A stretch of DNA of 45,139 nucleotides from positions 1 to 45,139 of the forward strand of contig DATIGQ010000203.1 in the NCBI GenBank assembly GCA_035454605.1, given 5' to 3'. Within the stretch, counting starts at the first letter, position 1; each line of letters starts with the position of its first letter. This stretch comes from Terriglobales bacterium. GTDB taxonomy: Bacteria; Acidobacteriota; Terriglobia; Terriglobales; Acidobacteriaceae. Shown one piece after another: positions 5,332-30,948 of the stretch. The translations under genes and the position numbers were made by a program. The notes under the pieces were generated by a model. That model made no database searches and had not been told where the DNA came from. It saw only the letters and a list, made by a program, of their open reading frames with translations.

Positions 5332-5420
5332 TGGTGCCGGGAGCGGGAGTTGAACCCGCAAGGGCCTTGCGGCCCGGCGGATTTTGAGTCCGCTGCGTCT
5401 GCCAGTTCCGCCATCCCGGC
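5332..5420 (-). tRNA. tRNA-Leu (anticodon CAA)
   Basis: Read on the minus strand, the acceptor arms GCCGGGA (5' end at 5420) and TCCCGGC pair over 7 bp and are followed by A and an encoded CCA. The anticodon loop CTCAAAA sits in stem GCGGA/TCCGC, giving CAA. A long variable arm (GGGCCGCAAGGCCC) and the T-arm loop TTCAACT are present, as expected for class II tRNA-Leu. The antisense peptide ORFs here are artefacts of the tRNA. Confidence 0.95.
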
Positions 5421-5755: not shown

Positions 5756-5914
5756 CTAACCGCGACCGCCGCCGGGAAGATCGCCCGCGCCGGACACCTT
5801 GTCGAGGTCGGAGTCGGACAACTCGCTTCCAGGTCCCTTCTTGGAATCCACTTCTTTCTCGTGATTCTTCTTCGGGTCGGGTTCGCCGGCCTGCTTGTCC
5901 TTTTCTGTCGTCAT
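5756..5914 (-). CDS. Candidate exported-peptide precursor with double-glycine-type leader
   Basis: This 52-residue ORF starts at the ATG at 5914, with AAGGAG about 9 bases upstream. The first half is very polar (Lys, Asp, Glu). Residues 31-44, ELSDSDLDKVSGAG, match the pattern ELSxxxLxxVxGG/GA that ends leader peptides of Nif11/NHLP-type and class II bacteriocin precursors and is cut by C39 peptidases. The remainder after the GA/AG site is only DLPGGGRG, a glycine-rich tail of 8 residues without cysteine, so the classical cross-linked core is missing. The NHLM-type exporter with a C39 domain lies 2.8 kb away on the same strand, which makes it a probable client, though this is inference. It is divergent from the kinase gene (195 bases between starts). 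It could also be a non-bacteriocin short peptide that uses the same motif. Confidence 0.6.
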   Translation of the reverse strand: MTTEKDKQAGEPDPKKNHEKEVDSKKGPGSELSDSDLDKVSGAGDLPGGGRG

Positions 5915-6067
5915 GGCATCAATCTCCTTATTCCTATCACTTAGGATAGCTGTAACCAGCGGGGCGACGGCCAACGCCAAGATAAAGCAACGCGTCTCGT
6001 GGGAGGATGCACACAGCCTACGCCTGACGGGAGCCAGAAACAAGGAGATTCCGCGTTGCAGGTTTGG

Positions 6068-6096
6068 TTGACCCTTAACTTGCAGCGACATAAAAT
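6068..6096 (+). promoter_or_regulatory. Strong predicted promoter of the Ser/Thr kinase gene
   Basis: TTGACC (6068-6073) and TAAAAT (6091-6096) are separated by exactly 17 bases, close to the sigma-70 consensus. Transcription would start around 6103, only about 7 bases before the ATG at 6110, so the mRNA would be nearly leaderless. This position also argues against the longer GTG start at 5999. Confidence 0.65.
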
Positions 6097-6109
6097 TCGA
6101 CCACTTCCC

Positions 6110-8683
6110 ATGCCGGTCGCAGCGGGTACCAGGTTCGGCGTATACGAGGTGTTGGCTCCGTTGGGGGCGGGCGGCATGGGCGAGGTTTATCGGGCGCGCG
6201 ACCACAGCCTGGACCGCGAGGTCGCCGTCAAGGTGCTTCCCGCCCATCTAAGCCGTGATCCCGATCGTCTGCGGCGATTCGAGCAGGAGGCCCGCGCGGC
6301 CGCCGCTCTCAATCATCCCCATATCCTGACCGTGTTCCAGTTGGGGACGGACCCCAGCGGCTCGCCCTACGTGGTTTCGGAACTTCTCGAAGGTCAGACG
6401 CTTCGCGAAAGGCTGAATTCCGGTCCCTTGCCCGCACGCAAGGCGATCGACTACGCCATGCAGATGGCGAGCGGCTTGGCAGCGGCTCATAACAAGGGCA
6501 TCGTCCATCGCGATCTCAAGCCGGATAACCTATTCATTACAAAAGAGGATCGGGTCAAGATCCTGGATTTCGGCTTGGCCAAGCTGGTGGAGTGGGAAGG
6601 CGCGGGCTCGGACACCAGCGCCCCTACCCTGGAAAGCGGCACCCGGCCTGGCAGTGTCATGGGAACAGTCGGCTACATGTCCCCCGAACAGGTCCGCGGC
6701 CAGCCAGCCGACCACCGCTCGGACATCTTCAGCTTCGGTACCGTCCTGTACGAGATGCTTTCTGGCAAACGCGCCTTCCGTCACGACAGCGCCGTAGAGA
6801 CTATGAGCGCCATCCTGAAAGAGGACCCGCCCGAACTCGTCGAGACGAACCGTAGCATCTCGCCGGCTCTGGAGAAGGTCGTCCGCCACTGCCTGGAAAA
6901 GGATCCCAATCTGCGGTTCCAGTCGGCACGGGACGTTGGATTCTACCTGCGGGAGCTCTCGGGACTGACCGACATCAGCACAGCGGTTGCGCCTCGTCCT
7001 GAAGTGCGAATCCGCTGGCGCCGCTGGGCGCTCTTGAGTGCAACGCTCGCGGCAGTCGCGCTTGCAGTCTGGGCGGGCCTGCAACTCGGCAAGGCGGCGC
7101 CCCCTGCGTTTCAGCAGCTCACATTCCGTCGCGGGACGATTCACCAAGCGCGCTTTTCGGCCGATGGGCAGACTGTGGTCTATAGCGCCCGCTGGGACGG
7201 GGAATCGGCTCAGGTCTACTCCACCCGGCCGGAGAGTCCGGAATCCAGTCCATTGGCGCTGCCTCGGGGGAACCTTCTGGCGATTTCCTCCAAGGGAGAC
7301 CTGGCAGTCACGCTGGGCTGCCGGTGGATCGGTCTGCTGGGGTGTGTAGGTACTCTGGCGACCGTGCCTCTGTCGGGGGGAGCACCGCGTGAGAGTCTGC
7401 AAGACGTGGAGTGGGCGGATTGGTCCCCGGATGGGCAGCAGTTGACCATCGTGCGCTACGCAGACGGTCACGAACGCCTTGAATATCCCGTAGGGAAAGT
7501 GCTGGTCGAGACAACCGGACTCATCAGCCATCCCCGCGTCTCTCCCAAGAATGACGGCGTCGCCTTTTTGGAGCATCCACCGCGATCAGACGCAGGAGCG
7601 GTGAATTTCGTGGATCTTTCCGGGAAAAAGACATCTCTGTCCGGGGGCTGGAGCACGATTCAAGGATTGGCGTGGTCGCCGGATGGCAGAGAGCTGTGGT
7701 TCACGGGCACGCGCAGCGGCAGCGTGCGTGCGCTGTACGCGGTCACGCGTGGCGGCCAGGAGCGCCTGATCCTGCGCGAGGCCGCTAACCTGACGTTGCA
7801 CGACGTGGCGCGGGACGGCCGGGTGCTGCTCTCGCACGACCTGACGCGCCTAGGGGTCCTCGGCCTCCGGAGCGGCGAAACGCATGAGCGCGACCTCTCC
7901 TGGTTCGACTGGTCCATTGTCGAGGACATCAGCGAGGATGGAAGCTGGTTCGTTTTTGCCGAGAGCGGCGAAGCGGTCCGGGGCGAGCCGGTCATGTACA
8001 AGCGCGACATGGATGGCTCCCCGGCGGTGCGGCTAGGACCCGGCCGTGCGGACCGGATCTCGCCCGACGGAAAGTGGCTGTTGGCGCGAACCCTGGCTGT
8101 ACCCTCCCAGCTTGTGCGGATTCCGCGAGGTCCCGGCGAGACGCAGCCCGTGACATCGGACGAGATCGACCATCTGCGGGCCGGATGGTCTCCTGACGGC
8201 AAGCAGGTTGTTTTCTCCGGCATTGAACCCGGGGGGCGGCGGCGGAGCTACATCCAGGCGGTCGAGGGCGGCAAGCCGCGCCCCATCACCCCTGAGGGCT
8301 ATTCCGGCAGGATTCTTTCTCCTGACGGCATGCATCTCCTCGCCTATTCGAGCAGCAAGCGAAGTGACGACATCAAGGTGTTGCTATTTCCCGTCGATGG
8401 CGGCGAACCAAAACCGGTGCTCGGCATTCTGGAAAACGAGGAAGAAGCTGGTTGGAGCGCAGACGGAAGGCTGATTGTTTTCCAGGCCAACCAGGTTCCC
8501 TCGAAGGTATTCCTGGTGGACACTGCGACCGGCCGACGAGAATTGTGGAAGGAACTCAAACCCGGAGATCCTTCCGGCGTCCTCGGCCTCTATGGCTTCC
8601 GCTCGAGCCGGTCCGGAAGCGCCTATGTCTACGGCTACATGCGGATCCTTTCGGATCTCTATCTCGTCGACGGACTGAAATAA
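6110..8683 (+). CDS. Transmembrane Ser/Thr protein kinase with PD40/TolB-like sensor domain
   Basis: The 857-residue protein has an N-terminal eukaryotic-type kinase domain (about residues 8-285) with all key parts: glycine loop GAGGMGEVY, Lys41 in VAVKV, catalytic Asp135 in HRDLKPDN, DFG at 153, and GTVGYMSPEQ in the activation segment. One membrane helix follows (about 307-326). The C-terminal 530 residues contain repeated SPDG/SADG blades (FSADGQTVVYS, WSPDGKQVVFSG, LSPDGMHLL), typical of a WD40-like beta-propeller facing the periplasm. This architecture is common in Acidobacteriota. It probably senses an extracytoplasmic signal and phosphorylates cytoplasmic proteins; the ligand and targets are unknown. 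The start at 6110 is favoured by the promoter at 6068-6096. It lies between the candidate peptide gene and the convergent exporter operon (9 bases between stops), so a role in controlling that system is possible but unproven. Confidence 0.92.
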   Translation: MPVAAGTRFGVYEVLAPLGAGGMGEVYRARDHSLDREVAVKVLPAHLSRDPDRLRRFEQEARAAAALNHPHILTVFQLGTDPSGSPYVVSELLEGQTLRERLNSGPLPARKAIDYAMQMASGLAAAHNKGIVHRDLKPDNLFITKEDRVKILDFGLAKLVEWEGAGSDTSAPTLESGTRPGSVMGTVGYMSPEQVRGQPADHRSDIFSFGTVLYEMLSGKRAFRHDSAVETMSAILKEDPPELVETNRSISPALEKVVRHCLEKDPNLRFQSARDVGFYLRELSGLTDISTAVAPRPEVRIRWRRWALLSATLAAVALAVWAGLQLGKAAPPAFQQLTFRRGTIHQARFSADGQTVVYSARWDGESAQVYSTRPESPESSPLALPRGNLLAISSKGDLAVTLGCRWIGLLGCVGTLATVPLSGGAPRESLQDVEWADWSPDGQQLTIVRYADGHERLEYPVGKVLVETTGLISHPRVSPKNDGVAFLEHPPRSDAGAVNFVDLSGKKTSLSGGWSTIQGLAWSPDGRELWFTGTRSGSVRALYAVTRGGQERLILREAANLTLHDVARDGRVLLSHDLTRLGVLGLRSGETHERDLSWFDWSIVEDISEDGSWFVFAESGEAVRGEPVMYKRDMDGSPAVRLGPGRADRISPDGKWLLARTLAVPSQLVRIPRGPGETQPVTSDEIDHLRAGWSPDGKQVVFSGIEPGGRRRSYIQAVEGGKPRPITPEGYSGRILSPDGMHLLAYSSSKRSDDIKVLLFPVDGGEPKPVLGILENEEEAGWSADGRLIVFQANQVPSKVFLVDTATGRRELWKELKPGDPSGVLGLYGFRSSRSGSAYVYGYMRILSDLYLVDGLK

Positions 8684-8692
8684 GTCGAGGGC

Positions 8693-11584
8693 CTAGGCCA
8701 TCTGCCGCGCCATGAGCTGCGCAAAAAGGCCGGGCTGCGATGCCAGTTCGTTGAAGGTTCCCTTTTGCAAGACGCGTCCCCCCTGGATCACGTAGATGCT
8801 GTCGGCGTGACGCACCGTACTCAGCCGGTGCGCTACCAGGAGGCGAGTGATTCGCAGGCGCTTCAGATTTTCGCTCACGATGGCTTGGGTGCGGTTATCG
8901 AGGGCGCTGGTGGCTTCATCCAGGATGAGGATGCGCGGTTTGGAGACCAGCGCCCTCGCCAGGAGCAAGCGCTGCCGCTGCCCGCCAGACAGGTTGCTTC
9001 CCCCTTCGGAAACCATGGTGAACATGCCCATGGGCATCTGCTCGATGTCCTCGGCAAAGGCAGCATGGCGGGCCGCTTCCCACGCTTCTTCCATCGTGCA
9101 GACACTGCTGCCGGCGATGTTGTAAAAGATGGGGCCGGCGATGAGACGATTCTCTTGCAGCACCACGCCCATCTGCCGGCGCACAGCCTCGCAGTTCAGG
9201 CCGCTCAAGTCTTGCCCGTCCAGATATACAGTGCCGATCAGTGGCGCCTCAAAACCGAGCAATAGGTTCAAGATGCTGGATTTCCCGCTGCCGGAAGGTC
9301 CTACGAGCGCAATGCACTCGCCAGCCCCGGCTTCGATCGAGACATCATCGAGCGTCAGCGGGCCGTCGGCCCGGTAACGAAACGTGACGTGATCGATGGA
9401 AAAACGTCCGGTGAGCACGCCGGGGTCGGCATCGGAGGAGCTCTGTTCAGTCTCAGCATCCAGAATGGAGCGGGCGCGGCGCCACAGGCTGGTCACAGTC
9501 ACCAGCGACTGGCTCGTTTCGCCCACGGTGACGACGCCGGCCAGCACCATGCCGAAGGCGGCGCTGAAGGCCAGGAAGGAACCCAACGCCATGCCGTCCG
9601 CCAGACCTTCCTGCGCTCGCCGCACGGCATCGGCCGCGAGGGGAAACACCACCGCTAGCGATACCGCCGGAAGCACGCCATTCGAGATCGCAACCGTGTC
9701 CTGAAGCCCGCGCAGCCGGTCCACCAGCTTCTGTTTTTCGCCGTACTCCCTGGCCCAACGGGCAAACGCCCGCTGCTCGGCGCCAGCCACGCGCAGTTTC
9801 GGCACCGCGTTGATGAGCTGCACCACCAGTCCGGTCAGCTCGCCCTCCTCCTTCTGCAGCCGCGGAATGAGGGCCGAGGCCCGATAGGCGCAGGTGCTGG
9901 TCAGGAACAGTGCCACCAGCGTGATTGCCAATCCCAGAACAGCCAGCGTGGAGTTGAAGTAGAACATCAGTCCCAGGTTCAACAGAGAGGCAAACCCCGT
10001 GAACAACGCGTTCAGGGTGCTGCCGCTCAGGTTCCGCTGGATTTCCGATACGGCGTTGGCGCGCGCGTGCAGATCGCCGGTGGTGAACTGGCGGAAGAAC
10101 GATGTCGGGACGCGCATCAGTCGATCCCATACGGCCGCCTGCAGCGTAGAGGCGCCGGCCACTTCGAGCCGCAAGCTGTTCAATGTCTGGGCCGCGCGGA
10201 AGATCGTGGCACCGAGAGTGGCAGCGACGAGCCCGAAGGCCACCTGGAGCATCACCCGACGGTCGGCATCCGGAATGGCCATATCGATGAGGACCGCTGT
10301 GAGCAGCGGCACCGCCATGCCCACCAGCGTGGCGGCAAGGCCCGAAAGCATCACCACCCACGCCTCGTGGGCCTGGCCGCGAAGGGCGAAGCGAACCGCA
10401 GCCCGCAAATCGGCGCGGGCGGGAAGGCTGGGATACAAAGTGTGGGCGACCGGCACGAGCGTCTGTGCGGTCTCGCGATCCACAGGAATGCGGCGCATCT
10501 CGGCGAAGTCGCGGATTTCGTACCCTCGCCCGCGCCGATCCCGCAACAGGGCGACGGGGCGCTGCTCGGGACTGAGATATCCCAGCAACGGACCCGCGTC
10601 CTTCGTCCACCAGTCTGGGGGTAACGTCGTCCGTCGGCTGCGGATACCCGAAGCGCGCAAGACCCGCTGCAGATCGTCCCGGTCTCCCTTGCCCGAACCC
10701 TCGGGGACCCGAACTTCCATCCCCAAGGCACCGGCCACGGCGCGCACCGCAGCTACCAGGGGCGTGCCGTCGGAGACGGTCGGTTCCTCGCGAACCGGGG
10801 AGACCAGCGCCGCGAGCCGGGCGACAGCGCTTCGTGTCGCCTGCGCATCGAGCCACTGGCGACGCAGGAATCTCTCTTCCTCCGCTATCTTGCGCCCCTT
10901 ATCGCCCATTTCCAGGGAGCGCATGAAGTAGGTCCCTAGGAGATCCAAGCCGCTAAGGCACGCATTCTCATCCTGAATGGCACCCGACGGCTGAAGCACA
11001 AGGGAGGTTTCCTCGGTGGCTTGGAGCCATGTGCCTCCGCCCAGCGGGTAAATCCCATGCGCCGAGGTCAGAAGCAGTTCTGGTACGCCAAGGAAGCAGA
11101 CAGCTCCGCGTTCAACCTTGATCCAGACGACCTGGGCCGGTTGCGGCCCTATGCGCTCCCCCGGCCGCAGGGCGACCGATTGAGCGCCGTCGACGTTGAC
11201 GGTGACAGGCGAATCGCCTTCAGCTTCGATGGCGCTACCCAGGTTGCGGATCCAGCGCTCGAGTAGCGAGAGCGCCTGGTGGTCTCCTCCGGCAAGCGCG
11301 TGGGCCAGTTCGCGGCGCGAGCCAGGCAGCAAGCGAACCGGCTCAAGGGCAACCGCGACCAAACGCATGTCGGTCTCGCGGTTGCCGGTCGCGGCCGGTA
11401 CCAGTAGTTGCCCGCCAGCCACGGTGAACAAGAGGCGACGCTCGCCTTTGCCATGCTCGTTCGCCGCGTACACAGCTACGAGGCCAGACTCGACCAGCCA
11501 TAGAGTGTCGGCATGGTCGAGAAGGATGGGCTCGTTACCCTCCACCGGGATCGAATCCGCGGCCAGTCTGTCGCCGAAGTTCAA
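8693..11584 (-). CDS. NHLM-type peptide export ABC transporter, permease/ATP-binding subunit (second ABC gene)
   Basis: The 963-residue protein is a half-transporter with a long N-terminal extension. Residues 1-270 resemble a degenerate cyclic-nucleotide-binding fold (LVESGLVAVYAA) and lack peptidase residues; about 270-390 may be a degenerate C39-like segment. An ABC membrane domain follows (hydrophobic from about 415). The nucleotide-binding domain has Walker A GPSGSGKSS near residue 762, signature LSGGQRQR, Walker B LILDEATSALD and the switch His in VAHRLS, so it should be active. The layout fits the NHLM bacteriocin-system ATP-binding protein (TIGR03797-like). The start is a TTG at 11584 overlapping the previous stop (TTGA); the first ATG is 72 codons in and would remove part of the domain. 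It is the last gene of the export operon and probably forms a heterodimer or paired transporter with the C39 protein. Confidence 0.82.
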   Translation of the reverse strand: MNFGDRLAADSIPVEGNEPILLDHADTLWLVESGLVAVYAANEHGKGERRLLFTVAGGQLLVPAATGNRETDMRLVAVALEPVRLLPGSRRELAHALAGGDHQALSLLERWIRNLGSAIEAEGDSPVTVNVDGAQSVALRPGERIGPQPAQVVWIKVERGAVCFLGVPELLLTSAHGIYPLGGGTWLQATEETSLVLQPSGAIQDENACLSGLDLLGTYFMRSLEMGDKGRKIAEEERFLRRQWLDAQATRSAVARLAALVSPVREEPTVSDGTPLVAAVRAVAGALGMEVRVPEGSGKGDRDDLQRVLRASGIRSRRTTLPPDWWTKDAGPLLGYLSPEQRPVALLRDRRGRGYEIRDFAEMRRIPVDRETAQTLVPVAHTLYPSLPARADLRAAVRFALRGQAHEAWVVMLSGLAATLVGMAVPLLTAVLIDMAIPDADRRVMLQVAFGLVAATLGATIFRAAQTLNSLRLEVAGASTLQAAVWDRLMRVPTSFFRQFTTGDLHARANAVSEIQRNLSGSTLNALFTGFASLLNLGLMFYFNSTLAVLGLAITLVALFLTSTCAYRASALIPRLQKEEGELTGLVVQLINAVPKLRVAGAEQRAFARWAREYGEKQKLVDRLRGLQDTVAISNGVLPAVSLAVVFPLAADAVRRAQEGLADGMALGSFLAFSAAFGMVLAGVVTVGETSQSLVTVTSLWRRARSILDAETEQSSSDADPGVLTGRFSIDHVTFRYRADGPLTLDDVSIEAGAGECIALVGPSGSGKSSILNLLLGFEAPLIGTVYLDGQDLSGLNCEAVRRQMGVVLQENRLIAGPIFYNIAGSSVCTMEEAWEAARHAAFAEDIEQMPMGMFTMVSEGGSNLSGGQRQRLLLARALVSKPRILILDEATSALDNRTQAIVSENLKRLRITRLLVAHRLSTVRHADSIYVIQGGRVLQKGTFNELASQPGLFAQLMARQMA

Positions 11585-13791
11585 GATGGCGTCGCCTCCG
11601 TAAGCGCCTCGCCCTCGCTGGCCAGGAGCGTCCGGTAGTGCCCTTCCTCAGCCCACAACTGCTCGTGGGTGCCGCGCTGTGTGACCTTGCCCCGGTCGAG
11701 CACGATGATCTCGTCGCAATCACGGATGGTGCTGAGCCGGTGGGCCACGATGATGCACGTGCAACCCCGGCGACGGATGTTTCGATCCACGAGCTTCTCG
11801 GTTTCCGCGTCGAGCGCACTGGTGGCTTCGTCCATCACCAGGATCGAGGGGCGGTTCACGAGGGCGCGCGCGATCTCCAGTCGTTGCACCTGGCCGCCGC
11901 TCATGTTGGCCGCGCGCTCCAGAAGCTGGCTGTTATAGCCACCGGGCAGGAAGGCGATGGCCTCGTCGATGACCGCATCCCAGCAAGCCTGGTCGATCTG
12001 TTCCTCGGGGACACTGGCGTCCCACAGCGTCAGATTCTCGCGCACCGTGCCAGCGAACAGCACGATATCCTGCTCCACCATGGCGATGGAATTGGTGAGT
12101 AGCTCCCTCGGCAGAGTCGAGCGTTCCTCGCCGTCGAAGAGGATTTCACCGCTCCAGGGCTCATAGAGACCTGCCACCAGCTTGCTGATGGTGGACTTGC
12201 CCGACCCCGTCGAGCCGATCAGTGCCACCCGCTGCCCGGGTTGGAGGCGAAAGGAAAGGTCTTCGATCAGCGGCGGGGCGGCGCGGTTGTATCCAAAGGT
12301 GAGGTTACGGACGTCGACGTACCCTGCCAATCGTACCGGATGCCGACTGGCGACCCACGGAACCGACAACCGGGTGGCACGCTCCTTGGAGTTCTCCAGC
12401 ACGTCGTCGAGCCGGCTCAGGTCGCCTTCCAGCTCTTGCATGACGGCACCGAAGCCCATCAGGTTGTTCACCGGCAGCAAAAAGCTGGCAGTCAGGGCCT
12501 GGAAGGCGATCAGCATGCCGATGGTGAGCGTCCCGCCCAGCACACGGTACCCACCCACTACCAAGATGAGCGTGGTCATCAGGAAGGCCAGAAAGCCGGG
12601 CAGCAGGCCGAGGTAGTGATTGGCGAGCGCCATCCGCTGGGAAGTGTTCACGGTCTTGGCATAGTGGCCCGACCAGCGGGCGAAGAAATCGTTCTCTAGC
12701 GCGGAGGCCTTCAGCGTGCGGATGCCCTGCAAGCCCGAGATGGCTACCGCATGCGTCATGCCGAGGTCATGCGCGAGCTTCAGGTTCGTGTCTTTGCGGC
12801 GACGGGCAATGGCCTGCAGCGCCATCACGTTCACAACCGCCAGGGCCAGGGCAATGACCGTCAGGACGGCATCGAACTGCAGCATCACCGCGGCGTAGAA
12901 CACCGTCATGCCCAGACCGACCGCGGTGGTTGCCAAGCGACCCGAGAGCGCATCGGCCACCTTATCGTTCAGGTACAGGCGGCTGCTGATCTCGCCGCTG
13001 AACCGCTGCGCGTAGTAGGAGACCGGAAGCTGCAACAGGTGCCAGAGGAATCGACTGGACATGGCCACGGAGAGCTTCATGCGGAGCCGTCGCAGAACTC
13101 TCTGCTGCATCAGAGAAAGAACAAACTGGAGCGCTGCGGCCACCAGCAACGCCAAGACAATGGGTCGCAGCCAGTCTTGCAGCCGGCGGATCAGCACGTC
13201 GTCGATGAAGACCTGGGTCAAGGCAGGCACTGTGATTCCAGGCAGGACCAGCAGGAAGCCCGCCAGGATGCAGAACAGCAAACTGGTGCGCGATCCGTCC
13301 AGCCGGGTTCGCAAGCCTTCCACGACGCTGGGCTTGCGGCCACCGCGCTCGAATTGCGGTCCCGGCTCCATGGCCAGAACCACCCCGGTATAGGACTCGT
13401 CGAATTCCTGTTCACTGACGGAACGCGGTCCGGTTTCAGGATCGTTCAGAAGAAACTGACCGTTCTTGTAGCCCTCAACCACCAGGAAGTGGTTGAAGTT
13501 CCAGAAGACAACATAGGGATAGCGGAGTTCGTGCAGGGATGAGAGTTCCTTCTTGTACCCCTTGGCGTTCAGGCCGTAGCGGCGTGCGGCCGCGACGACG
13601 TTGGAGGCCTTGCTGCCGTCGCGCGAGACGCCGCAGTCCTGCCGCAACTGAGCCAGGGGCACGATGCGCCCGAAGTAGCCGAGAATGATGGCCAGCGATG
13701 CTGCCCCGCACTCCACCGCCTCCATCTGAAGCACGGTCGGTGTGCGGACCCGTCCTTCGCGGTATTGCGGCGGTTGGCTAGTAGGTTCCAC
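11581..13791 (-). CDS. NHLM-type export ABC transporter with N-terminal C39 peptidase
   Basis: The 736-residue protein has the three classical parts of a peptidase-containing ABC transporter. The C39 domain (about 15-145) has catalytic Cys28 in MEAVECGAASL, His101 in NFNHFLVVEGY and Asp117 in LLNDP, so the protease that removes double-glycine leaders looks intact. A membrane domain follows (about 165-460), then a nucleotide-binding domain with Walker A IGSTGSGKST, signature MSGGQ, Walker B LVMDEATSALD and VAHRLS. It would cut and export a leader-bearing peptide across the inner membrane. The layout matches NHLM peptidase/permease/ATPase proteins (TIGR03796-like). The start is a GTG at 13791 overlapping the adaptor gene by 14 bases; the stop overlaps the next start. 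The only candidate substrate in the window is the peptide at 5756-5914. Confidence 0.9.
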   Translation of the reverse strand: MEPTSQPPQYREGRVRTPTVLQMEAVECGAASLAIILGYFGRIVPLAQLRQDCGVSRDGSKASNVVAAARRYGLNAKGYKKELSSLHELRYPYVVFWNFNHFLVVEGYKNGQFLLNDPETGPRSVSEQEFDESYTGVVLAMEPGPQFERGGRKPSVVEGLRTRLDGSRTSLLFCILAGFLLVLPGITVPALTQVFIDDVLIRRLQDWLRPIVLALLVAAALQFVLSLMQQRVLRRLRMKLSVAMSSRFLWHLLQLPVSYYAQRFSGEISSRLYLNDKVADALSGRLATTAVGLGMTVFYAAVMLQFDAVLTVIALALAVVNVMALQAIARRRKDTNLKLAHDLGMTHAVAISGLQGIRTLKASALENDFFARWSGHYAKTVNTSQRMALANHYLGLLPGFLAFLMTTLILVVGGYRVLGGTLTIGMLIAFQALTASFLLPVNNLMGFGAVMQELEGDLSRLDDVLENSKERATRLSVPWVASRHPVRLAGYVDVRNLTFGYNRAAPPLIEDLSFRLQPGQRVALIGSTGSGKSTISKLVAGLYEPWSGEILFDGEERSTLPRELLTNSIAMVEQDIVLFAGTVRENLTLWDASVPEEQIDQACWDAVIDEAIAFLPGGYNSQLLERAANMSGGQVQRLEIARALVNRPSILVMDEATSALDAETEKLVDRNIRRRGCTCIIVAHRLSTIRDCDEIIVLDRGKVTQRGTHEQLWAEEGHYRTLLASEGEALTEATPS

Positions 13792-15094
13792 TTACGGACC
13801 TCAGGAAGGGCAGCAGGTAGGTGATAGGCGCACGCTCCTCCACCGCTACCCGTACCGAGTTCGTCGTCCCTGGGGAGAGCTTCAGTTCTGGGCCTTTGGA
13901 GGCGGACCACCGGTAGCCGCTGTAGGTGCTGGAATCTCCTTCCAGATCGGCGGTCACCTGGATGTAGGCGCCGGGAGGCATGATTTTCTGCGCCACTTCT
14001 ACGCTACCGATCAGGCTGACCGCACCCTCACGGCTGACCGGAAACGGCGAGACTACGTTGACCGACCCCACGATGCCGCCAAAGCGCTGACGCTCCACGG
14101 TGTCAGGTGTGATTTGCACGGGCATCCCGGGCCGGATCTTCTTTCCGTCACCCACCGAGAAATACAGCAACCCGACCAGCGACGCGCTGTCCCCGCTTGT
14201 ATCCATGCGTGCGACCGGGGTGCCGGCAATCATGTACTGGCCGGGAGTACCTGCTACTTCGACCACGCGGCCTCCGTGGTCGCACCGAACCTCGCTGCTC
14301 TTCCGCAGTTCGGCCTCGTCCTCCGCGATGCGCCCTTCCAGTTGGCGCATTTGCACCTGACGCTGCGTGGTGGCTTCCATGATCTCCCGCGCAAACCCCT
14401 TGTCGCTGGTCTCTGTCTGTTTCAGTTCGTCCTGCACCTGTTGCAGGCGCGCATACATCAGGCTGATCTTCCCCTGGTTGTTGGCGTAGTCCTTCTCTGC
14501 GTCCACCAGGTCCCCGGCGGTTTCCGCAATCAGCCCCAGGTCCTTCACATGTCGCAGACTCTCGAGTCTCTTCTTCAAAAAGGACTCCATCCTTTCCGCT
14601 TCACCCAACTCCGTCTGGAAGTTACGGGCCTGCAACTGCAATGTCTTCCTGGCCAGGTCGTACTGCTCACGATGCAATCTCATCTGCTCGGACTGAAGAA
14701 CCGATTTGGCCCGATGTTGCGCCTGCAGTTCGACCAGCAGCGAGCGGTTCTCCTGCACGCGGCGCCAGATTTCGCCCTGGTCGATGTGCCCGATCACTTG
14801 GCCCGGGCGCACCACATCGCCCACGCGTATGCCGAGTAATTCGAGCCTCCCCGAAGCGGGCGCCGGGCAGTCCAGCACCCGCCGCGGGATGACGAAAACA
14901 CCGCGGCCGGTGACGGTCGTGGGGATTCGGCCGACGACGCTCCAGATCAGAACCACCACCAGCAGCGCTGCGGCTGACCACAGCAGCATCCAGTCCTGCG
15001 GGCGCACGACCACCATCAGTTCGTCGATCTTCTCGGGGGAAGAAATGTTCTCTAGCGCCCTCTTGCGATAGATGTCCGACTTACTACCGAGCAT
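13778..15094 (-). CDS. NHLM-type export system HlyD-family adaptor protein
   Basis: The 438-residue protein has a short cytoplasmic N-terminus (with the sequence RKRALENISSPEKIDEL, typical of NHLM secretion proteins), one membrane helix at about residues 35-55 (MLLWSAAALLVVVLIWSVV), a lipoyl-like half (GRLELLGIRVGDVVRPGQVIGHI), a long coiled-coil region (about 110-270, rich in Glu, Gln, Arg) and a C-terminal beta-barrel region. This is the plan of HlyD-type periplasmic adaptors (TIGR03794-like) that join an inner-membrane ABC exporter to an outer-membrane channel. No TolC-like channel gene is in the window, so one must be shared from elsewhere if export goes to the outside. The ATG at 15094 lies 35 bases after the cyclic-nucleotide-fold gene. 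Confidence 0.88.
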   Translation of the reverse strand: MLGSKSDIYRKRALENISSPEKIDELMVVVRPQDWMLLWSAAALLVVVLIWSVVGRIPTTVTGRGVFVIPRRVLDCPAPASGRLELLGIRVGDVVRPGQVIGHIDQGEIWRRVQENRSLLVELQAQHRAKSVLQSEQMRLHREQYDLARKTLQLQARNFQTELGEAERMESFLKKRLESLRHVKDLGLIAETAGDLVDAEKDYANNQGKISLMYARLQQVQDELKQTETSDKGFAREIMEATTQRQVQMRQLEGRIAEDEAELRKSSEVRCDHGGRVVEVAGTPGQYMIAGTPVARMDTSGDSASLVGLLYFSVGDGKKIRPGMPVQITPDTVERQRFGGIVGSVNVVSPFPVSREGAVSLIGSVEVAQKIMPPGAYIQVTADLEGDSSTYSGYRWSASKGPELKLSPGTTNSVRVAVEERAPITYLLPFLRSVSGTY

Positions 15095-15129
15095 GGCCAG
15101 TCCTCCGCGTCATCCTCTCAGTGAGGGTG

Positions 15130-15669
15130 TCAGATGTCGCGCAGCCGCCGCTGCAGCCAGTCAAAACGCGCTCCCGCCAGGGTGAGCCTATCCAGGACCT
15201 CGGGGTCCATTTCGTCGGTTTCCACTTCCTCGGTACCGGGCGACGGTTCTTTCCCATAGCCCAGCTGCCCGATGGAGTGCCGCAACCGGTCAGCCAGGAA
15301 CACCGCAATAGCCCGGTAGAACCGGGCGGCGAAGGGGAGATCGCTTTCCAGTTTGCCGGTGATTCCGGCCAGCGGTACGGCGAGTACATGGGAGGGCTCG
15401 AGCGCAGTCACGGACGCGGAGGGTGGCCGCGAATCCACGAACGACACCTCGCCGACCACTTCACCGCTCTTGAGCCGTGCGACCTCCCGCTGTGCCTCGC
15501 CTACAGAGACGGCAAACGAACCGTCCAGCACGATGAACATGTTTCCGATCGCCTTGCCTTCTTGGATCAGGACTTCGCTCGTCGTCAGCTCCCGCTTTGA
15601 GCCGTGGGCGATGAGCCAGTCAATGTCGCTGTCGTTGAGAATCCCAAGGAGAAAAAGCGCCTTGCGCAT
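15130..15669 (-). CDS. Cyclic-nucleotide-binding-fold protein, first gene of the export operon
   Basis: The 179-residue protein is a single cNMP-binding beta-roll: LIQEGKAIGNMFIVLDGSFAV is the first strand set and LKSGEVVGEVSFVDSRPPSASVTAL is the phosphate-binding cassette, with GE in the usual Gly-Glu position and an RPPSAS version of the RxA(S/T) element. No DNA-binding helix-turn-helix follows; the C-terminal 45 residues are acidic and helical. Such proteins are found with bacteriocin-type exporters (TIGR03896-like transport-associated proteins). The ATG at 15669 has GGAGGG about 6 bases upstream. It probably tunes or scaffolds the exporter rather than acting as a transcription factor; whether it binds cAMP or c-di-GMP is not clear. 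Confidence 0.8.
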   Translation of the reverse strand: MRKALFLLGILNDSDIDWLIAHGSKRELTTSEVLIQEGKAIGNMFIVLDGSFAVSVGEAQREVARLKSGEVVGEVSFVDSRPPSASVTALEPSHVLAVPLAGITGKLESDLPFAARFYRAIAVFLADRLRHSIGQLGYGKEPSPGTEEVETDEMDPEVLDRLTLAGARFDWLQRRLRDI

Positions 15670-15872: not shown

Positions 15873-16094
15873 ATTTTCGTCCGCCAGTTACTGCAAAAGC
15901 GCGGCTGGACGCAGGTCCAACTCGCCGAGCACGTCGGCCTTGACCGTAACTATGTGGCGGATGTCGAACGCGGCAACCGCAACATCTCCCTCGTGAACCT
16001 TGAGCCCGACCCTGAGGACGTCGTAGAATCTAGGCGGGCCAAGCTCGTAGCCGATACACCAGTTTTGGGCCGGCCACGCTTCCATCGCGTTTGA
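15873..16094 (+). pseudogene. Remnant of an XRE-family helix-turn-helix regulator
   Basis: Read in frame from 15873, the translation contains VRQLLQKRGWTQ, then QLAEHVGLDRNYVADVERG and NRNISLVNLE, a near-perfect Cro/cI-type HTH (helix 2 QLAEHVGL, recognition helix DRNYVADVERG). There is no ATG, GTG or TTG start: an in-frame TAG lies directly before 15873. After NLE the frame loses family similarity (PDPEDVVESRR and so on to the stop at 16092), while a shifted frame gives TLRTS and a stop, the sort of sequence that usually continues NLE..IARTL. I read this as a gene broken by a small deletion, with loss of its start. It is too short for automatic gene callers. It may be what is left of a regulator for the neighbouring export operon. 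Confidence 0.6.
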
Positions 16095-16134: not shown

Positions 16135-18063
16135 ATGCCTGCGAAAACCGAGTTCGCGTTGCGCCATGACGTTTCCCTTCTGGGCGACGACGACCTCCAC
16201 TTGTTCAACGAGGGCTCGCACACACGCCTCTACGAAAAACTGGGAGCCCACGTCATTCAGGCGGATGGAACTGCGGGCACCTGTTTTTCCGTGTGGGCGC
16301 CCAACGCCGAGCGCGTCTCCGTGCTCGGCACTTTCAACGGCTGGAACGCACAGGCCCACCCGTTGCATCAGCGTGGGCGGTCGGGCATCTGGGAAGGCTT
16401 CGTTGCGGGCGCGGGTAAAGGAGAGGTGTACAAGTTCCGCATTGTGTCCCGTAACGCTGGCTACTCGGTGAGCAAGGCGGACCCCTTCGCGGTCATGTCG
16501 GAGCTCCCCCCCAAGACCGCGTCGGTGGTATGGAATCTCGACTACCGCTGGGATGATAGCGATTGGATGAAGCAGCGCCATCGCAGCAACTCGCTGCAAA
16601 GTCCCGTCTCCATCTACGAAGTGCATCTTGGTTCATGGGCGCGCGTGCCTGAGGAGGGAAACCGCTCACTTTCCTATCGCGAGATAGCTCCGCGGCTGGC
16701 GAGTTATGTCGAGAACATGGGATTCACGCACGTTGAACTCATGCCGGTCATGGAGCATCCATTCTACGGATCCTGGGGCTACCAGGTGACCGGCTACTTC
16801 GCGCCTACCAGCCGCTATGGCACGCCCCAGGACTTCATGTACCTGGTGGACCATCTGCATCAGCGCGGCATCGCCGTGATCCTCGACTGGGTACCTGCGC
16901 ACTTTCCTTCCGACGAGCACGGCCTCGCCTACTTCGACGGCACCCATCTTTACGAGCACGCCGACCCGCGACAGGGCTACCACCCTGATTGGGGCAGCTA
17001 CATCTTCAATTACGACCGCCACGAAGTGCGCAGCTTCCTGCTGAGCAACGCCTTCTACTGGCTGGACCGGTATCACGCCGACGGCCTGCGCGTGGACGCG
17101 GTGGCTTCCATGCTCTACCTGGACTACTCGCGCAAGGCAGGCGAGTGGGTGACCAACCAATACGGCGGGCGTGAAAACCTGGGCGCCATTCAGTTCCTGC
17201 GCCGCTGCAACGAGGACGTGTATCGCGAGCATCCCGATGTTCAGGTCATCGCCGAAGAATCCACGTCGTGGCCCATGGTGTCACGGCCCATTTACGTCGG
17301 AGGACTGGGATTCGGACTCAAGTGGGACATGGGCTGGATGCACGACACCTTGCAGTACATGGCCTTCGACCCCATCCATCGCAAGTACCGCCACAGCCAC
17401 CTCACTTTCCGCATGCTGTATGCCTTCACGGAAAACTTCGTTCTGCCGCTTTCTCACGACGAAGTGGTGCACGGCAAAGGTTCGCTGATCGCCAAGATGG
17501 CGGGTGACGATTGGCAGCGCTTCGCCAACCTGCGCCTGCTCTTCGCCTACATGTACTCTCAGCCGGGGAAGAAGCTGTTATTCATGGGCAGCGAGATTGC
17601 CCAGTGGCACGAATGGAACCATGACAGCAGCCTGGATTGGCACCTGACCGAGTACGGCAGCCATCGCGGCGTCCAAAAGCTGGTCGAGGACCTGAACCGC
17701 CTCTATCGCAGCGAGCTTGCGCTGCACGAACTGGACTGCGCTCCGAACGGCTTCGAATGGGTTGATGCCGGCGATTCGGACCAGTCGGTCCTCACTTACT
17801 TGCGGTGCGCACGTTCCGGGGAGCGTACCATCCTGGTGGCGCTCAATTTCACGCCCGTACCGCGCGTGGGCTATCGCATCGGCGTGCCCTTCAGCGGCTT
17901 CTGGAAAGAAGTGCTGAATACCGACGCTACCGCATACGCTGGCAGCGGATGGGGAAATTGGGGCGGCGTCACAGCGTCGGACGTCCCCTGCCACGGACGC
18001 CCGTTCTCGGTTGCGGTCAGCCTGCCTCCATTGGCCGCCGTACTCTTTCTGCACGAAGGGTAG
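16135..18063 (+). CDS. glgB: 1,4-alpha-glucan branching enzyme (GH13)
   Basis: The 642-residue protein makes alpha-1,6 branches in glycogen-like glucan. It has an N-terminal CBM48 domain ([22 protein letters not shown]) and a GH13 barrel with catalytic Asp321 ([11 protein letters not shown]), Glu374 (IAEESTSWP) and Asp442 (LSHDEVVHG). The spacings 53 and 68 equal those between Asp405, Glu458 and Asp526 of the E. coli enzyme. It lacks the first of the two N-terminal domains of the E. coli form, as in many shorter GlgB proteins. The ATG at 16135 has no clear Shine-Dalgarno sequence. It converges with the trehalose/GlgE operon, whose product GlgE supplies the linear chains that GlgB branches. 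Confidence 0.96.
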
Positions 18064-18186
18064 AAGCTGCGGCTGGGCACCTCGCCCAGGAACAGAGGCG
18101 CCGGCAAAGACAATTTCCGCAGCACCGCACCACGGTTTGATCCTGTCCCGTGCCCCGGGAGGACGTCACGACTTGCAAAGGCCTTG

Positions 18187-21100
18187 CTATCTGGATTCCG
18201 AGCTGCCCTTGAGCAAATCGAGGACGCCGTGCACCGGAATCTGCAGCCAATCGGGTCGATTATTCAGCTCATATCCCAGCTCGTAGATGGCCTTTTCCAA
18301 CAAGTAAGCCTCGAGCAGAAGCTGCAGTTCCCCTCGATTGCGGGGCATCCAGACTCCTTCGGCCGCGGTTTGCAGATAGGCGCGCAGGAAGACCGCTGAG
18401 CAATAGGCGTACCAATAGAACGCCCACGGTTCCAGCGCGGGAAGGTCCTCAGGGCGAACGGCGCGGCCCGCGCTCGGGCCCAGCAAGGCCGCGTACGCGG
18501 CGTAGTGAAATGAGCGCAGCATTCCGGCTACGTCCCGCAACGGTGAACGCTTGATCCGCCGCTCTCCAATGGAACGCGCAGGCTCACCCTCGAAATCGAT
18601 GATCACAAAATCGTCGCCAGTGTGGAGCACCTGGCCGAGGTGGTAGTCGCCGTGAATGCGTGTGCGCATCGCGCTAATCTTCCCCTCGGTGATAGCGCGG
18701 AACTTCCCCAGAATCGCCGCCTCCTGCCCGACAACCGCCTGGGCGTCGGACCGCACCGCTTCCGGCAGTGTGGGAATGCGCTGGCGCAACATCTGGAACG
18801 AGTTGGATGCCAGGTTGCGCATCGATTGGTAGAGCGAACGCTGGTAGAAAGGAGTGAACGCTTCGGGCACGAAGGCGGAATCCTGCGAATCCGAAGCCAG
18901 GGCCAAGTGCATTTCGGCGGTGCGCTGGCCCAACAGCCGCGCCGACTCCAGGTAGGTTCCGATCAACGCTCCAGCCTGCTCGGGCAGATCCTGACTTGCC
19001 AGGGTGAGCGGCGAAACCGGGGTCATGGTTTCTGGCCGCGACTCGGTCGGCAGCGCCGTCACCCGCTCGTAGAAGCGCGAGAGCGCATCCAGACTGTACT
19101 GCCATGCATCTCCCTGGTTGACCACGAATCCTTGCAGGATTCCGAGCGTGATCGGAGCCGCCCCTTTGCGCTGGTACTCCAGGGCCCCAGCCACGGGAGC
19201 GATCTGTCGAAATCCAGTCTTTTCCGTAAGAAAAGCGCCGATTTCCAGGTCGGGGTTCACGCCGTCCTGCAACTTCCGGAAGACCTTCAAGATCATCCGA
19301 TCGCCGAAGAGCACCGAGGAGTTGCTTTGCTCGGTTCGCAACAGCGAAGGAGGCAGGACATCAGAGGTCTCGCCCCGCAGGCTCCGGAAGGCGCGGGTCG
19401 GCCTGCCTACCACCTCACCCCCCTGACCGCGCAGCCGGCGTCGCCTGGCGATGGTTTCCAGCAAGGCCGCACAAAACCCTGGATCGCGCATGGCGCCGTA
19501 GATCACGCCCTTGCCGTCGGGTCCTGAGGTGCGGGCAACAATGGAGTGCGCGTGGCTCTCCTCGATTCGCTCCGCCTGCTCACCGGCAGCGAAGCTCAGG
19601 GGCACCGAGTAGTTCTCTGGATCCCCTTCCGTATACTCCACGTTCACGATGGCAATGTACGTCACACCTCCGTCATGCTGCAGCGGCACACCGTCGGCGA
19701 CGGTGGCGGACTTAACGCGGCGGGCCTTGCTTCCGAACCAGCGCCGCGAGACCAGGAAGCGGGGCAGTGCCCGCTCCAGGGACCGGCTTCCGCCCTTGCG
19801 CAAAAGGTTCTGCCACCCTCCCGCGAAGGCCACCGTCGGCGCCGACGCAATCTCTCCGGTCACGCTCTCAACCTCAGCCACGCGCCGCGGCTCCAGCGCG
19901 AACCAGTGAAAAGCGTACCCTCCCAGAGTCAGCAGGTAGGGCAGCTCCCCGATGGGAGGAAACTCGGTGCGCCCGGAGAGCTCTACGGGCACCATGTCCT
20001 TATAGGCGGAAAGATCCAACTCGACGTATTGGGCGAACCGCGAAAGGTTGGCCACGACCAAGATGGTCTGTTCCTGGAACCTGCGGACGAAAGCCAGCAC
20101 CCGGCGGTTCTCGGGCGAAAGAAACTCCAGCGTTCCCCAGCCGAACGCATGATGCTGCTTACGGAAGGCAATAAGGCGTTTCGTCCACCACAGGATGGAA
20201 TGTGCGTTCTGCTGCGACGACTCGACGTTGGTTGATTCATAGTGGAAATCGGGGTCGATAATCAGCGGGAGGAACAGGCGCTGCGAGTTGGCGCGGGAAA
20301 AGCCCGCGTTCCGGTCCGGCGTCCACTGCATGGGCGTGCGCACCCCGTTGCGGTCGCCCAAGTAGATGTTGTCTCCCATGCCGATCTCATCACCGTAGTA
20401 GACCACCGGCGTTCCGGGCAGCGAAAACAGCAGACCGTTCATCAGTTCGATCTTGGCCCGGTTCCGCTCCAGCAGAGGCGCCAGTCGCCGCCGGATGCCC
20501 AGGTTGATTCGCGCCTGCGGATCGTTGGCATACACCCGGTACATGTAGTCGCGCTCTTCGTCTGTCACCATCTCCAGCGTCAATTCGTCGTGATTGCGAA
20601 GGAAGATGGCCCATTGGCAAAGCGGTGGAATGGAAGGTGTCTGCTGAAGAATGTCCAGAATCGGATAGCGGTCCTCCATGCGGATAGCCATGAACATGCG
20701 CGGCATCAGCGGGAAGTGGAACGCCATATGGCATTCATCACCTTCACCGAAGTAGGCCACCGCATCCTCCGGCCACTGGTTGGCCTCCGCGAGGAGCATT
20801 CGCCCCGGAAAATCCTTGTCCACGTGCGCGCGCAGTGCCTTCAAGAAGGCATGCGTCTCGGGCAGATTCTCGCAATTTGTTCCCTCGCGCTCGTAGAGGT
20901 ACGGCACGGCATCCAAACGCATGCCGTCCACGCCCATCTCCAGCCAGAAGTCCACGACGTGGAACAAAGCGCGATGCACGGCCGGGTTGTCGAAGTTGAG
21001 ATCGGGTTGGTGGCAATAGAAGCGGTGCCAGAAATAGGCCTTGGCGACCGGATCCCACGTCCAGTTGGAGGCTTCAAAATCCTTGAAAATAATGCGCGCG

Positions 21101-21549: not shown

Positions 21550-21562
21550 TCCTGCTCCTTTT

Positions 21563-23593: not shown

Positions 23594-23713
23594 CCGCCTG
23601 ACCTCCTGCGCTAGAGTGGCCCGCCACCCACGGTGCACGCAGGAGACTGCGGCCCAGTTCTTTATGATAAATGATGGCTCGCGTCTCTAAGACAGGAAAT
23701 GAATCCCGCGCGA

Positions 23714-29017: not shown

Positions 29018-29035
29018 GATGTAGGGCTGTTTACT

Positions 29036-30874: not shown

Positions 30875-30948
30875 CGGCCCACCAGCTTCGCGCATGCTGC
30901 TTGACGTATCCGTGCCCACGTCGACCTCTCCCGGTTCCACGCCCGCGT

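What the first reader, a model, noticed from the sequence alone, without database searches (positions are those of the whole stretch)
5756..15669. Peptide export island with an intact C39/NHLM exporter, a mini-precursor and no modifying enzyme
The sequence shows a complete NHLM-type set (cNMP-fold protein, HlyD-like adaptor, C39-ABC, second ABC) on one operon, and a 52-residue peptide whose leader ends in ELSDSDLDKVSGAG. NHLM systems are normally linked with lanthipeptide, YcaO or nitrile-hydratase-like modifying enzymes; none is present between 5421 and 16094. Either the exporter serves unmodified peptides or distant loci, or the small peptide is a new class of secreted factor tied to the neighbouring Ser/Thr kinase.
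Basis: partly seen in the sequence, partly recalled or inferred. Interest (0 to 1): 0.78.

Follow-up and report, generated by a model that had tools for sequence, protein, structure and literature searches.

The report
Exporter for an unmodified nine-residue peptide
A bacterium carries a complete peptide-cutting and exporting pump, apparently with one tiny partner gene whose released peptide would be only about nine amino acids long and unmodified; the pump is of a known kind, but such miniature partner peptides look like an overlooked variant.

Summary
Four minus-strand genes (8693-15669) encode a full NHLM-type exporter (cNMP-fold protein, HlyD-like adaptor, C39-ABC, second ABC). The 52-aa ORF (5756-5914, -) is very probably a real gene: Shine-Dalgarno site, coding-like composition, and a leader that fits the C39 rule (-12 Leu, -7 Leu, -4 Val, Gly-Ala). 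It predicts a Cys/Ser/Thr-free core, GDLPGGGRG. It is the only leader above background in its genome, which has one C39 domain and no LanC or YcaO match. The peptide is outside the exporter operon; a kinase gene lies between.

NHLM exporters without LanM are common: 30 of 34 complete cyanobacterial loci; 10 of 18 exporter genomes of this class lack both LanC and YcaO. The architecture matches cyanobacterial 'group V' clusters published in 2011. The kinase is one of 41 Pkinase matches and its position is not conserved. New is a scattered set of mini-precursors (5-23-residue, mostly Cys-free cores) in exporter-bearing genomes of the class. Best reading: an unmodified oligopeptide, cut and exported by this pump; its function is undetermined.

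The parts
5756..5914 (-). 52-aa mini-precursor: 43-residue leader MTTEKDKQ...ELSDSDLDKVSGA and predicted core GDLPGGGRG (cut after Gly42-Ala43)
   Evidence: sequence and codon statistics; leave-one-out leader profile; sole leader match above background in its genome
5924..5929 (-). Shine-Dalgarno-like AAGGAG, 9 nt before the ATG at 5914
   Evidence: upstream sequence printed; get_sequence
6110..8683 (+). Ser/Thr protein kinase with C-terminal PD40 propeller, divergent from the peptide and convergent with the exporter (ORF open from GTG 5999)
   Evidence: Pfam PF00069 1.1e-50 and PF07676; translation. One of 41 Pkinase matches in the genome; link to the peptide not supported
8693..11584 (-). 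ABC2: second NHLM ABC permease/ATPase without C39, with N-terminal extension (very weak cNMP-fold match)
   Evidence: TIGR03797 848 bits; PF00005, PF00664; PF00027 E 0.047, below cut-off
11581..13791 (-). ABC1: C39 peptidase - permease - ATPase; C28, H101, D117 and Q22 align with C27, H101, D117 and Q21 of LahT
   Evidence: TIGR03796 1091 bits; 6mpz E 5e-44; LahT residues; only C39 match in the genome
13778..15094 (-). HlyD-like adaptor of the NHLM system
   Evidence: TIGR03794 303 bits
15130..15669 (-). cNMP-binding-fold protein, single domain
   Evidence: TIGR03896 162.5 bits, model positions 139-317 only; PF00027 6e-15

Best explanation
A dedicated peptide-secretion module. The 52-residue precursor is made, its N-terminal 43 residues dock by the -12/-7/-4 hydrophobic positions in the C39 domain of ABC1, Cys28 cuts after Gly-Ala, and the nine-residue peptide GDLPGGGRG is exported by ABC1 (with ABC2 and the HlyD adaptor, the cNMP-fold parts probably being regulatory). 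The core has no Cys, Ser or Thr, so it is probably secreted without lanthionine, azole or sactipeptide modification. Shown: the genes, the exporter families, alignment of the protease residues, leader fit, no LanC or YcaO match genome-wide, a single C39 match and a single leader above background. Inferred: that this peptide is the substrate, the cut site, the lack of modification, and any role as a signal or antagonist.
For: Complete exporter, single C39 gene in the genome, C39 domain closest to LahT150 (E 5e-44), whose substrates need hydrophobics at -12, -7 and -4, double-glycine motifs including Gly-Ala (PMC6363468, passages); the peptide fits. Leave-one-out profile: sole hit in the window. 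Profile A2 (which includes the window's row) in 61 genomes: own hit E 4.5e-5, best in the 60 others 0.003. No LANC_like or YcaO in the genome. G233 and G240 carry similar mini-precursors a few hundred bases from their TolC-HlyD-ABC genes. Leader matches (E<=1e-3) fall in 9 of 399 class genomes; 8 of the 9 are among the 26 with ABC1, and the ninth, G248, has an exporter fragment on the contig of its mini-precursor. Without the three profile seeds, and not crediting G248: 5 of 6 matched genomes have ABC1 against 23 of 396 overall, hypergeometric p 2.5e-6; by genus 3 of 3 against 14 of 133, p 0.001.
Against: The peptide has no homologue beyond the leader, so conservation of the core cannot be tested. 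It lies outside the exporter operon, with a convergent kinase between. The window's ABC1 groups with G086/G276/G372/G241 (support 100/99), not with the mini-precursor clade of G233/G240, and G086 has a LanM and a Cys-rich precursor beside its exporter; no precursor was found beside the exporters of G241, G276 and G372. With a profile of cyanobacterial leaders alone the match is weak (E 0.12 at genome scale). Three weaker matches of profile A1 (E 0.026-0.082: G018, G398, G427) are in genomes without ABC1. No outer-membrane factor gene is in the operon. No expression or mass data.
Confidence: 0.6

Rival explanations
1. The exporter serves another substrate (no recognisable leader, or in the missing ~2% of the genome), and the 5756 peptide is a relic or minor substrate whose core has decayed to a glycine-rich stub.
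For: Peptide outside the operon; core low in complexity; sister exporter in G086 is linked to a Cys-rich precursor and LanM; a truncated XRE-like stretch lies between cNMP and GlgB, a sign of rearrangement.
Against: Leader, Shine-Dalgarno site and codon composition look intact; many mini-precursors with equally short cores occur in other exporter genomes of the class; no other leader rose above background in the own genome.
Confidence: 0.2
2. The peptide is a substrate but is modified by an enzyme of an unrecognised or distant kind before export.
For: Haft 2010 describes mix-and-match of exporters and modifying enzymes and regards the precursors as modified; in genus g122 mini-precursors in L205 and L207 sit beside a 528-aa ORF, identified in L207 as TPR/GT41 glycosyltransferase-like.
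Against: The core has no Cys, Ser or Thr and a single Asp; no LANC_like or YcaO in the genome; the one weak SPASM match has counterparts of similar strength in the exporter-less congener. Other enzyme families were not searched genome-wide.
Confidence: 0.1
3. Peptide and divergent kinase form an autocrine pair: the exported peptide is sensed by the extracytoplasmic PD40 propeller of the kinase.
For: Divergent neighbours about 195 bp apart; the kinase has a PD40 propeller after its kinase domain. A protein similar to the kinase lies near leader-bearing ORFs in L210 and in 4 of 80 cyanobacterial exporter loci.
Against: 41 Pkinase matches in the genome; 35 of 36 other class loci compared have no protein similar to this kinase; no exporter locus compared keeps the order.
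Confidence: 0.05
4. The 52-aa ORF is a chance reading frame.
For: Short ORF, no credible match in 99 other genomes, lying within a longer open frame of 163 codons.
Against:: leader motif, ribosome site and codon composition all agree.
Confidence: 0.05

Closest known systems
NHLM/NHLP three-gene export cassette (TIGR03794/03796/03797; BMC Biol 2010, PMC2887384, Haft et al. by recall; one section and passages read)
   Same: All three families present above their cut-offs, plus TIGR03896 just above its cut-off; the leader ends in a double-glycine-type motif
   Different: Precursor has no NHLP or Nif11 domain (no family match); no LanM or YcaO enzyme; 9-residue core
Cyanobacterial bacteriocin gene clusters, group V (PLoS One 2011, PMC3140520, Wang et al. 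by recall; passages and discussion read)
   Same: Short C39-ABC, HlyD, second ABC without C39, separate CAP_ED (cNMP) protein; LanM-bearing clusters are a separate group there; precursors from 28 aa
   Different: cNMP protein has one domain instead of two; precursor is separated from the operon by a kinase gene; the closest exporter in the tree is non-cyanobacterial
LahT C39 protease of an AMS/PCAT transporter (PDB 6mpz; eLife 2019, PMC6363468; passages read)
   Same: Closest solved relative (E 5e-44), catalytic residues aligned, same -12/-7/-4 leader rule
   Different: LahT belongs to a lanthipeptide system (as recalled); here no LanM
HetC, PCAT of Nostoc (Rachedi et al. 2024, PMC10986499; abstract and outline read)
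   Same: C39 ABC exporter with a cyclic-nucleotide-fold domain, proposed to export a signalling peptide in a Gram-negative; the domain binds ppGpp in vitro
   Different: HetC is a single fused protein in heterocyst development; its substrate is unknown

Membership tests
NHLM peptide exporter | TIGR03796 C39-ABC above cut-off | tested here: met
   1091 bits, cut-off 853
NHLM peptide exporter | TIGR03797 second ABC above cut-off | tested here: met
   848 bits, cut-off 709
NHLM peptide exporter | TIGR03794 HlyD-like adaptor above cut-off | tested here: met
   303 bits, cut-off 156
NHLM peptide exporter | C39 catalytic Cys/His/Asp present | tested here: met
   C28, H101, D117 align with LahT C27, H101, D117
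NHLP or Nif11 precursor | Nitrile-hydratase or Nif11 leader domain | tested here: not met
   No NCBIfam match up to E 10; Pfam only Mersacidin E 0.13, below cut-off
Double-glycine (C39) precursor | Hydrophobic -12, -7, -4 and Gly-Gly/Ala/Ser at -2/-1 | tested here: met
   L, L, V, Gly-Ala; rule
Double-glycine (C39) precursor | Cut by the cognate C39 domain | not testable with these tools
   needs a cleavage assay
Lanthipeptide / azole RiPP | LanC/LanM or YcaO enzyme in the genome | tested here: not met
   0 matches in G000
Cyanobacterial group V architecture | C39-ABC, HlyD, second ABC and separate cNMP protein together | tested here: met
   window genes against the description in PMC3140520; the bimodular form of the cNMP protein is not met
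Mini-precursor set of this class | Leader matching profile A1 with a core of 25 residues or less | tested here: met
   E 3.6e-20, but the window is one of the four seed rows; independent support is the leave-one-out profile of other leaders
Mini-precursor set of this class | Gene beside the NHLM operon | tested here: inconclusive
   Window: 2.8 kb away across a kinase; G233 and G240 have one or two beside it, G248 one on the same contig; those of G435, G256 and G206 and a second of G233 are on other contigs

The most novel reading that the evidence does not exclude
Mini-precursors with double-glycine leaders and 5-23-residue, mostly Cys-free cores (DLPGGGRG-, GWIEQK-, KIEF- and NPQPLPP-type) are an overlooked system of short unmodified secreted oligopeptides in this bacterial class, released by NHLM exporters and acting as cell-to-cell signals, a Gram-negative counterpart of processed peptide pheromones. 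In this window the peptide may be read by the divergent PD40 receptor kinase.
Probability: 0.2. Interest if true: 0.75.

Novelty: new variant of a known kind. Interest (0 to 1): 0.45.

Why it matters
NHLM exporters are usually discussed as the exit route of modified peptides. A genome with one C39 exporter, one recognisable precursor, a nine-residue core that cannot carry the usual modifications and no LanC or YcaO match is a clean case for testing export of short unmodified peptides in a Gram-negative-type bacterium. The recurring mini-precursors give a list of candidate oligopeptides short enough to be made chemically and tested directly. The pump itself is not new.

Tried and rejected
Rejected: (1) 'No modifying enzyme is abnormal': only 6 of 80 cyanobacterial loci, and 4 of the 34 that have all four exporter parts and 20 kb or more of DNA, have a LanM; only LanM was looked for there. 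(2) Kinase partnership. (3) Conserved peptide-kinase-exporter order: the peptide has no credible homologue in 99 other genomes; beside GlgB the congener G001 has different genes and it has no ABC1. (4) A precise insertion site at the tRNA-Leu (5332-5420): no synteny with G001 on the left flank, so no junction could be drawn. (5) The association of profile A1 with the exporter was recomputed without its seeds G000, G233 and G240. (6) Precursors of the sister exporters G241, G276, G372: none found with the motifs used.

Led nowhere: promoter and terminator scans (one promoter-like site before the kinase, none for the peptide); Rfam (only the tRNA); a text search for NPQPLPP (no paper). Not in print as far as searched: mini-precursors of this kind were not found with the searches (open-licence PMC papers only); listings with titles and starts of abstracts seen, five papers opened in part (PMC2887384, PMC3140520, PMC6363468, PMC10986499, PMC8692599; the last, passages, reports bacteriocin clusters in Acidobacteriota without such precursors in the passages seen). 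The motif searches are regular expressions over loci picked by exporter or leader matches, so their counts are not an unbiased sample. each drew 399 class genomes; I take them to be the same set because the listed handles agree.
Full report
WHAT IS THERE. The window is one whole contig (C203) of a 3.29-Mb genome of 222 contigs, 98% complete. On the minus strand lie, in order of transcription, a cNMP-fold protein (15669-15130), an HlyD-like adaptor (15094-13778), a C39-ABC transporter (13791-11581) and a second ABC transporter (11584-8693). All four score above the curated cut-offs of the NHLM/'bacteriocin export' models, TIGR03896 only just and over its C-terminal half. The C39 domain is the only PF03412 match in the genome. 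Its closest solved relative is LahT150 (6mpz, E 5e-44), and the residues that LahT uses (C27, H101, D117) align with C28, H101 and D117 here.

THE PEPTIDE. The ORF 5914-5756 (minus) reads MTTEKDKQAGEPDPKKNHEKEVDSKKGPGSELSDSDLDKVSGAGDLPGGGRG. It has AAGGAG nine bases before its ATG, and its GC by codon position (0.64/0.43/0.74) is like the exporter genes (ABC1 0.65/0.43/0.81). LahT needs suitable residues at -12, -7 and -4, and double-glycine motifs may be Gly-Gly, Gly-Ala or Gly-Ser (PMC6363468, passages). Counting from a cut after Gly-Ala gives L, L and V at those places; a cut one residue later, after GAG, would not. The predicted product is therefore GDLPGGGRG, nine residues without Cys, Ser or Thr.

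IS IT MORE THAN CHANCE? A profile of 52 leaders from other loci, with the window's row left out, finds this ORF as the only hit in the six-frame window, E 0.0013 when scaled to the genome; a profile of the 28 cyanobacterial leaders alone gives a weak E 0.12. The full profile A2 (which includes the window's row) gives E 4.5e-5 here. The best match in the 60 other genomes of that call is 0.003; of these 60 only G083 had ABC1. A second own match (C201, E 0.4) is at background level.

GENOME-WIDE MODIFYING ENZYMES. The own genome has no LANC_like match, no YcaO match and one weak SPASM match (E 2e-4); the exporter-less congener G001 has two of about the same strength, one in a frame of nearly the same length. 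So the absence is not just local. Only these three families were tested genome-wide.

IS THAT UNUSUAL? No. The best 80 of 379 named relatives of ABC1 found by the pattern scan are all titled as cyanobacteria (55-62% identity). Small ORFs with an ELSxxELDxVAGG-type leader lie in 38 of the 80 loci. Of 34 loci with all four exporter parts and at least 20 kb of DNA, 30 have no LanM (only LanM was tested). In the window's class, 26 of 399 genomes have ABC1 at E<=1e-240, 21 above the family's cut-off. Eighteen exporter genomes were tested for both families (17 of those 26, and G248): 10 of 18 have neither LANC_like nor YcaO; five of these ten are under 85% complete. Wang et al. 2011 (PMC3140520, passages and discussion) describe the same set as group V: short C39-ABC, HlyD, a second ABC without C39 and a separate CAP_ED protein. 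They put LanM clusters in another group, but also mention other modifying enzymes and a stand-alone LanM thought to work with group V exporters. Haft et al. 2010 (PMC2887384, section 6) found that the leader type tracks the export cassette more strongly than any modifying enzyme, while taking the precursors to be modified.

MINI-PRECURSORS IN THE CLASS. Around the exporters of G233 and G240 lie very similar genes: MTEKKKGKHPTAKPTKIRKDELSEKDLEKASGG|TWAKGGITATES...DELSDKDLEKASGG|LFKIEF...DELSDKDLEKASGG|GGNTSKIEF, before a TolC-like gene and the HlyD gene. Profile A1 of these three and the window peptide, in 399 class genomes, matches at E<=1e-3 in nine: G000, G206, G213, G233, G240, G248, G256, G307, G435; three more (G018, G398, G427) match at E 0.026-0.082 and have no ABC1. 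Eight of the nine are among the 26 genomes with ABC1; the ninth, G248, carries HlyD and the start of ABC1, cut by the contig end, on the same contig as its mini-precursor. Leaving out the three seed genomes and not crediting G248: 5 of 6 against 23 of 396, p 2.5e-6; by genus, without the seed genera, 3 of 3 against 14 of 133, p 0.001 (no correction on a tree). Some matches (G307, G213) are longer precursors that share only the leader end. In 36 loci of the class picked by exporter or leader matches I find 39 precursor candidates, 23 with cores of 25 residues or less, 2 of these 23 with Cys; in the 80 cyanobacterial loci 107 candidates, 13 with such short cores, 6 of these with Cys (regular expressions, so some are false). 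Examples of short cores: GWIEQKI/GWIEQKT/GWIENKF after VGA in three genomes of one genus, SYNKVF, VIAFERDAT, SFRIGTIKSD, INPQPLPPFHKED, LNPQPEPPGRHFKH. Several lie on other contigs than the exporter. The window peptide fits this picture in leader, core length and lack of Cys.

KINSHIP. In a 62-row tree of ABC1 (window, 21 class rows, 40 cyanobacterial rows from the odd-numbered loci) the window groups with G086, G276, G372 and G241 (support 100/99). These join the cyanobacterial rows and G090/G141 in a group of 48 rows (100/98); the clade of G233/G240/G206/G256 lies outside it (midpoint root, and the window's end branch is flagged as long). G086 has a LanM and a Cys-rich precursor beside its exporter. 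So related exporters appear to serve both kinds of precursor, and the mini-precursor of the window was probably not inherited together with a G233-type exporter. ABC1 is absent from the 59 other same-family genomes, including the congener; one search found it in three further same-family genomes. That patchiness suggests gain by transfer or many losses.

THE KINASE. 5999-8683 (plus) is a kinase with a PD40 propeller, likely starting at ATG 6110. It is divergent from the peptide and convergent with ABC2. The genome has 41 Pkinase matches at E<=1e-15 and the congener 21. A BLAST of this kinase against 36 class loci found one similar protein, in L210 of G256 beside two leader-bearing ORFs (cores of 20 and 36 residues); in the 80 cyanobacterial loci similar proteins occur in four (L048, L054, L099, L105). 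A functional tie is possible but unsupported.

MECHANISM. Most likely: cutting after Gly-Ala by the C39 domain and export of GDLPGGGRG by the ABC pair and adaptor, with an outer-membrane factor encoded elsewhere (none is in the operon; inferred). HetC, a cyanobacterial C39 exporter with a cNMP-fold domain that binds ppGpp (PMC10986499, abstract), suggests that the cNMP-fold parts regulate export; this is analogy. Whether the peptide is a signal, an antagonist or something else is not decided by any evidence here.

VERDICT. Observation confirmed; interpretation partly supported. The exporter is a member of a known kind. The mini-precursor is a new variant on the substrate side, not found in the papers searched.

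Noticed in passing
window 15882-16094 (+): Between cNMP and GlgB lies a truncated XRE-like helix-turn-helix stretch (RQLLQKRGWTQVQLAEHVGLDRNYVADVERGNRNIS...) without an ATG in that stretch: probably a gene remnant. The family name is by eye, not from a search.
   Followed up: partly
L200:10398-11084, L201:9868-10014 (G435): Mini-precursors whose cores share NPQPLPP/NPQPEPP, on two contigs other than that of the exporter; no paper held has the string.
   Followed up: partly
L205, L207 (G248, G233): Mini-precursor with core GWIEQK(T/I) beside a 528-aa ORF, in L207 a TPR protein with a GT41 (O-GlcNAc-transferase-like) domain; in G248 this is followed by a gamma-glutamyltransferase-like gene, TolC-like, HlyD and ABC1: a possible glycosylation or trimming variant.
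   Followed up: partly
L198, L199 (G307): Nine precursor candidates with long similar leaders and hydrophobic cores that all end in Trp (eight without Cys, one with one) flank an exporter and a divergent LanM-like protein (about 30% identity to that of G086).
   Followed up: no
L209, L210 (G256): Tandem cluster of six mini-precursors (cores of 6-12 residues, one with two Cys) upstream of a radical-SAM protein in L209; in L210 two more (cores of 20 and 36 residues) beside a kinase-TPR protein.
   Followed up: no
window 16135-30940: Glycogen/trehalose-type genes (GlgB, an alpha-amylase/maltokinase-cap fusion, GlgE-type and further GH13 genes) next to the exporter; in L160 (G241) a GlgX gene lies directly before the exporter's cNMP gene.
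   Followed up: no
G000 and G001, whole genomes: 41 against 21 Pkinase matches at E<=1e-15 in two genomes of one genus of nearly equal size.
   Followed up: no
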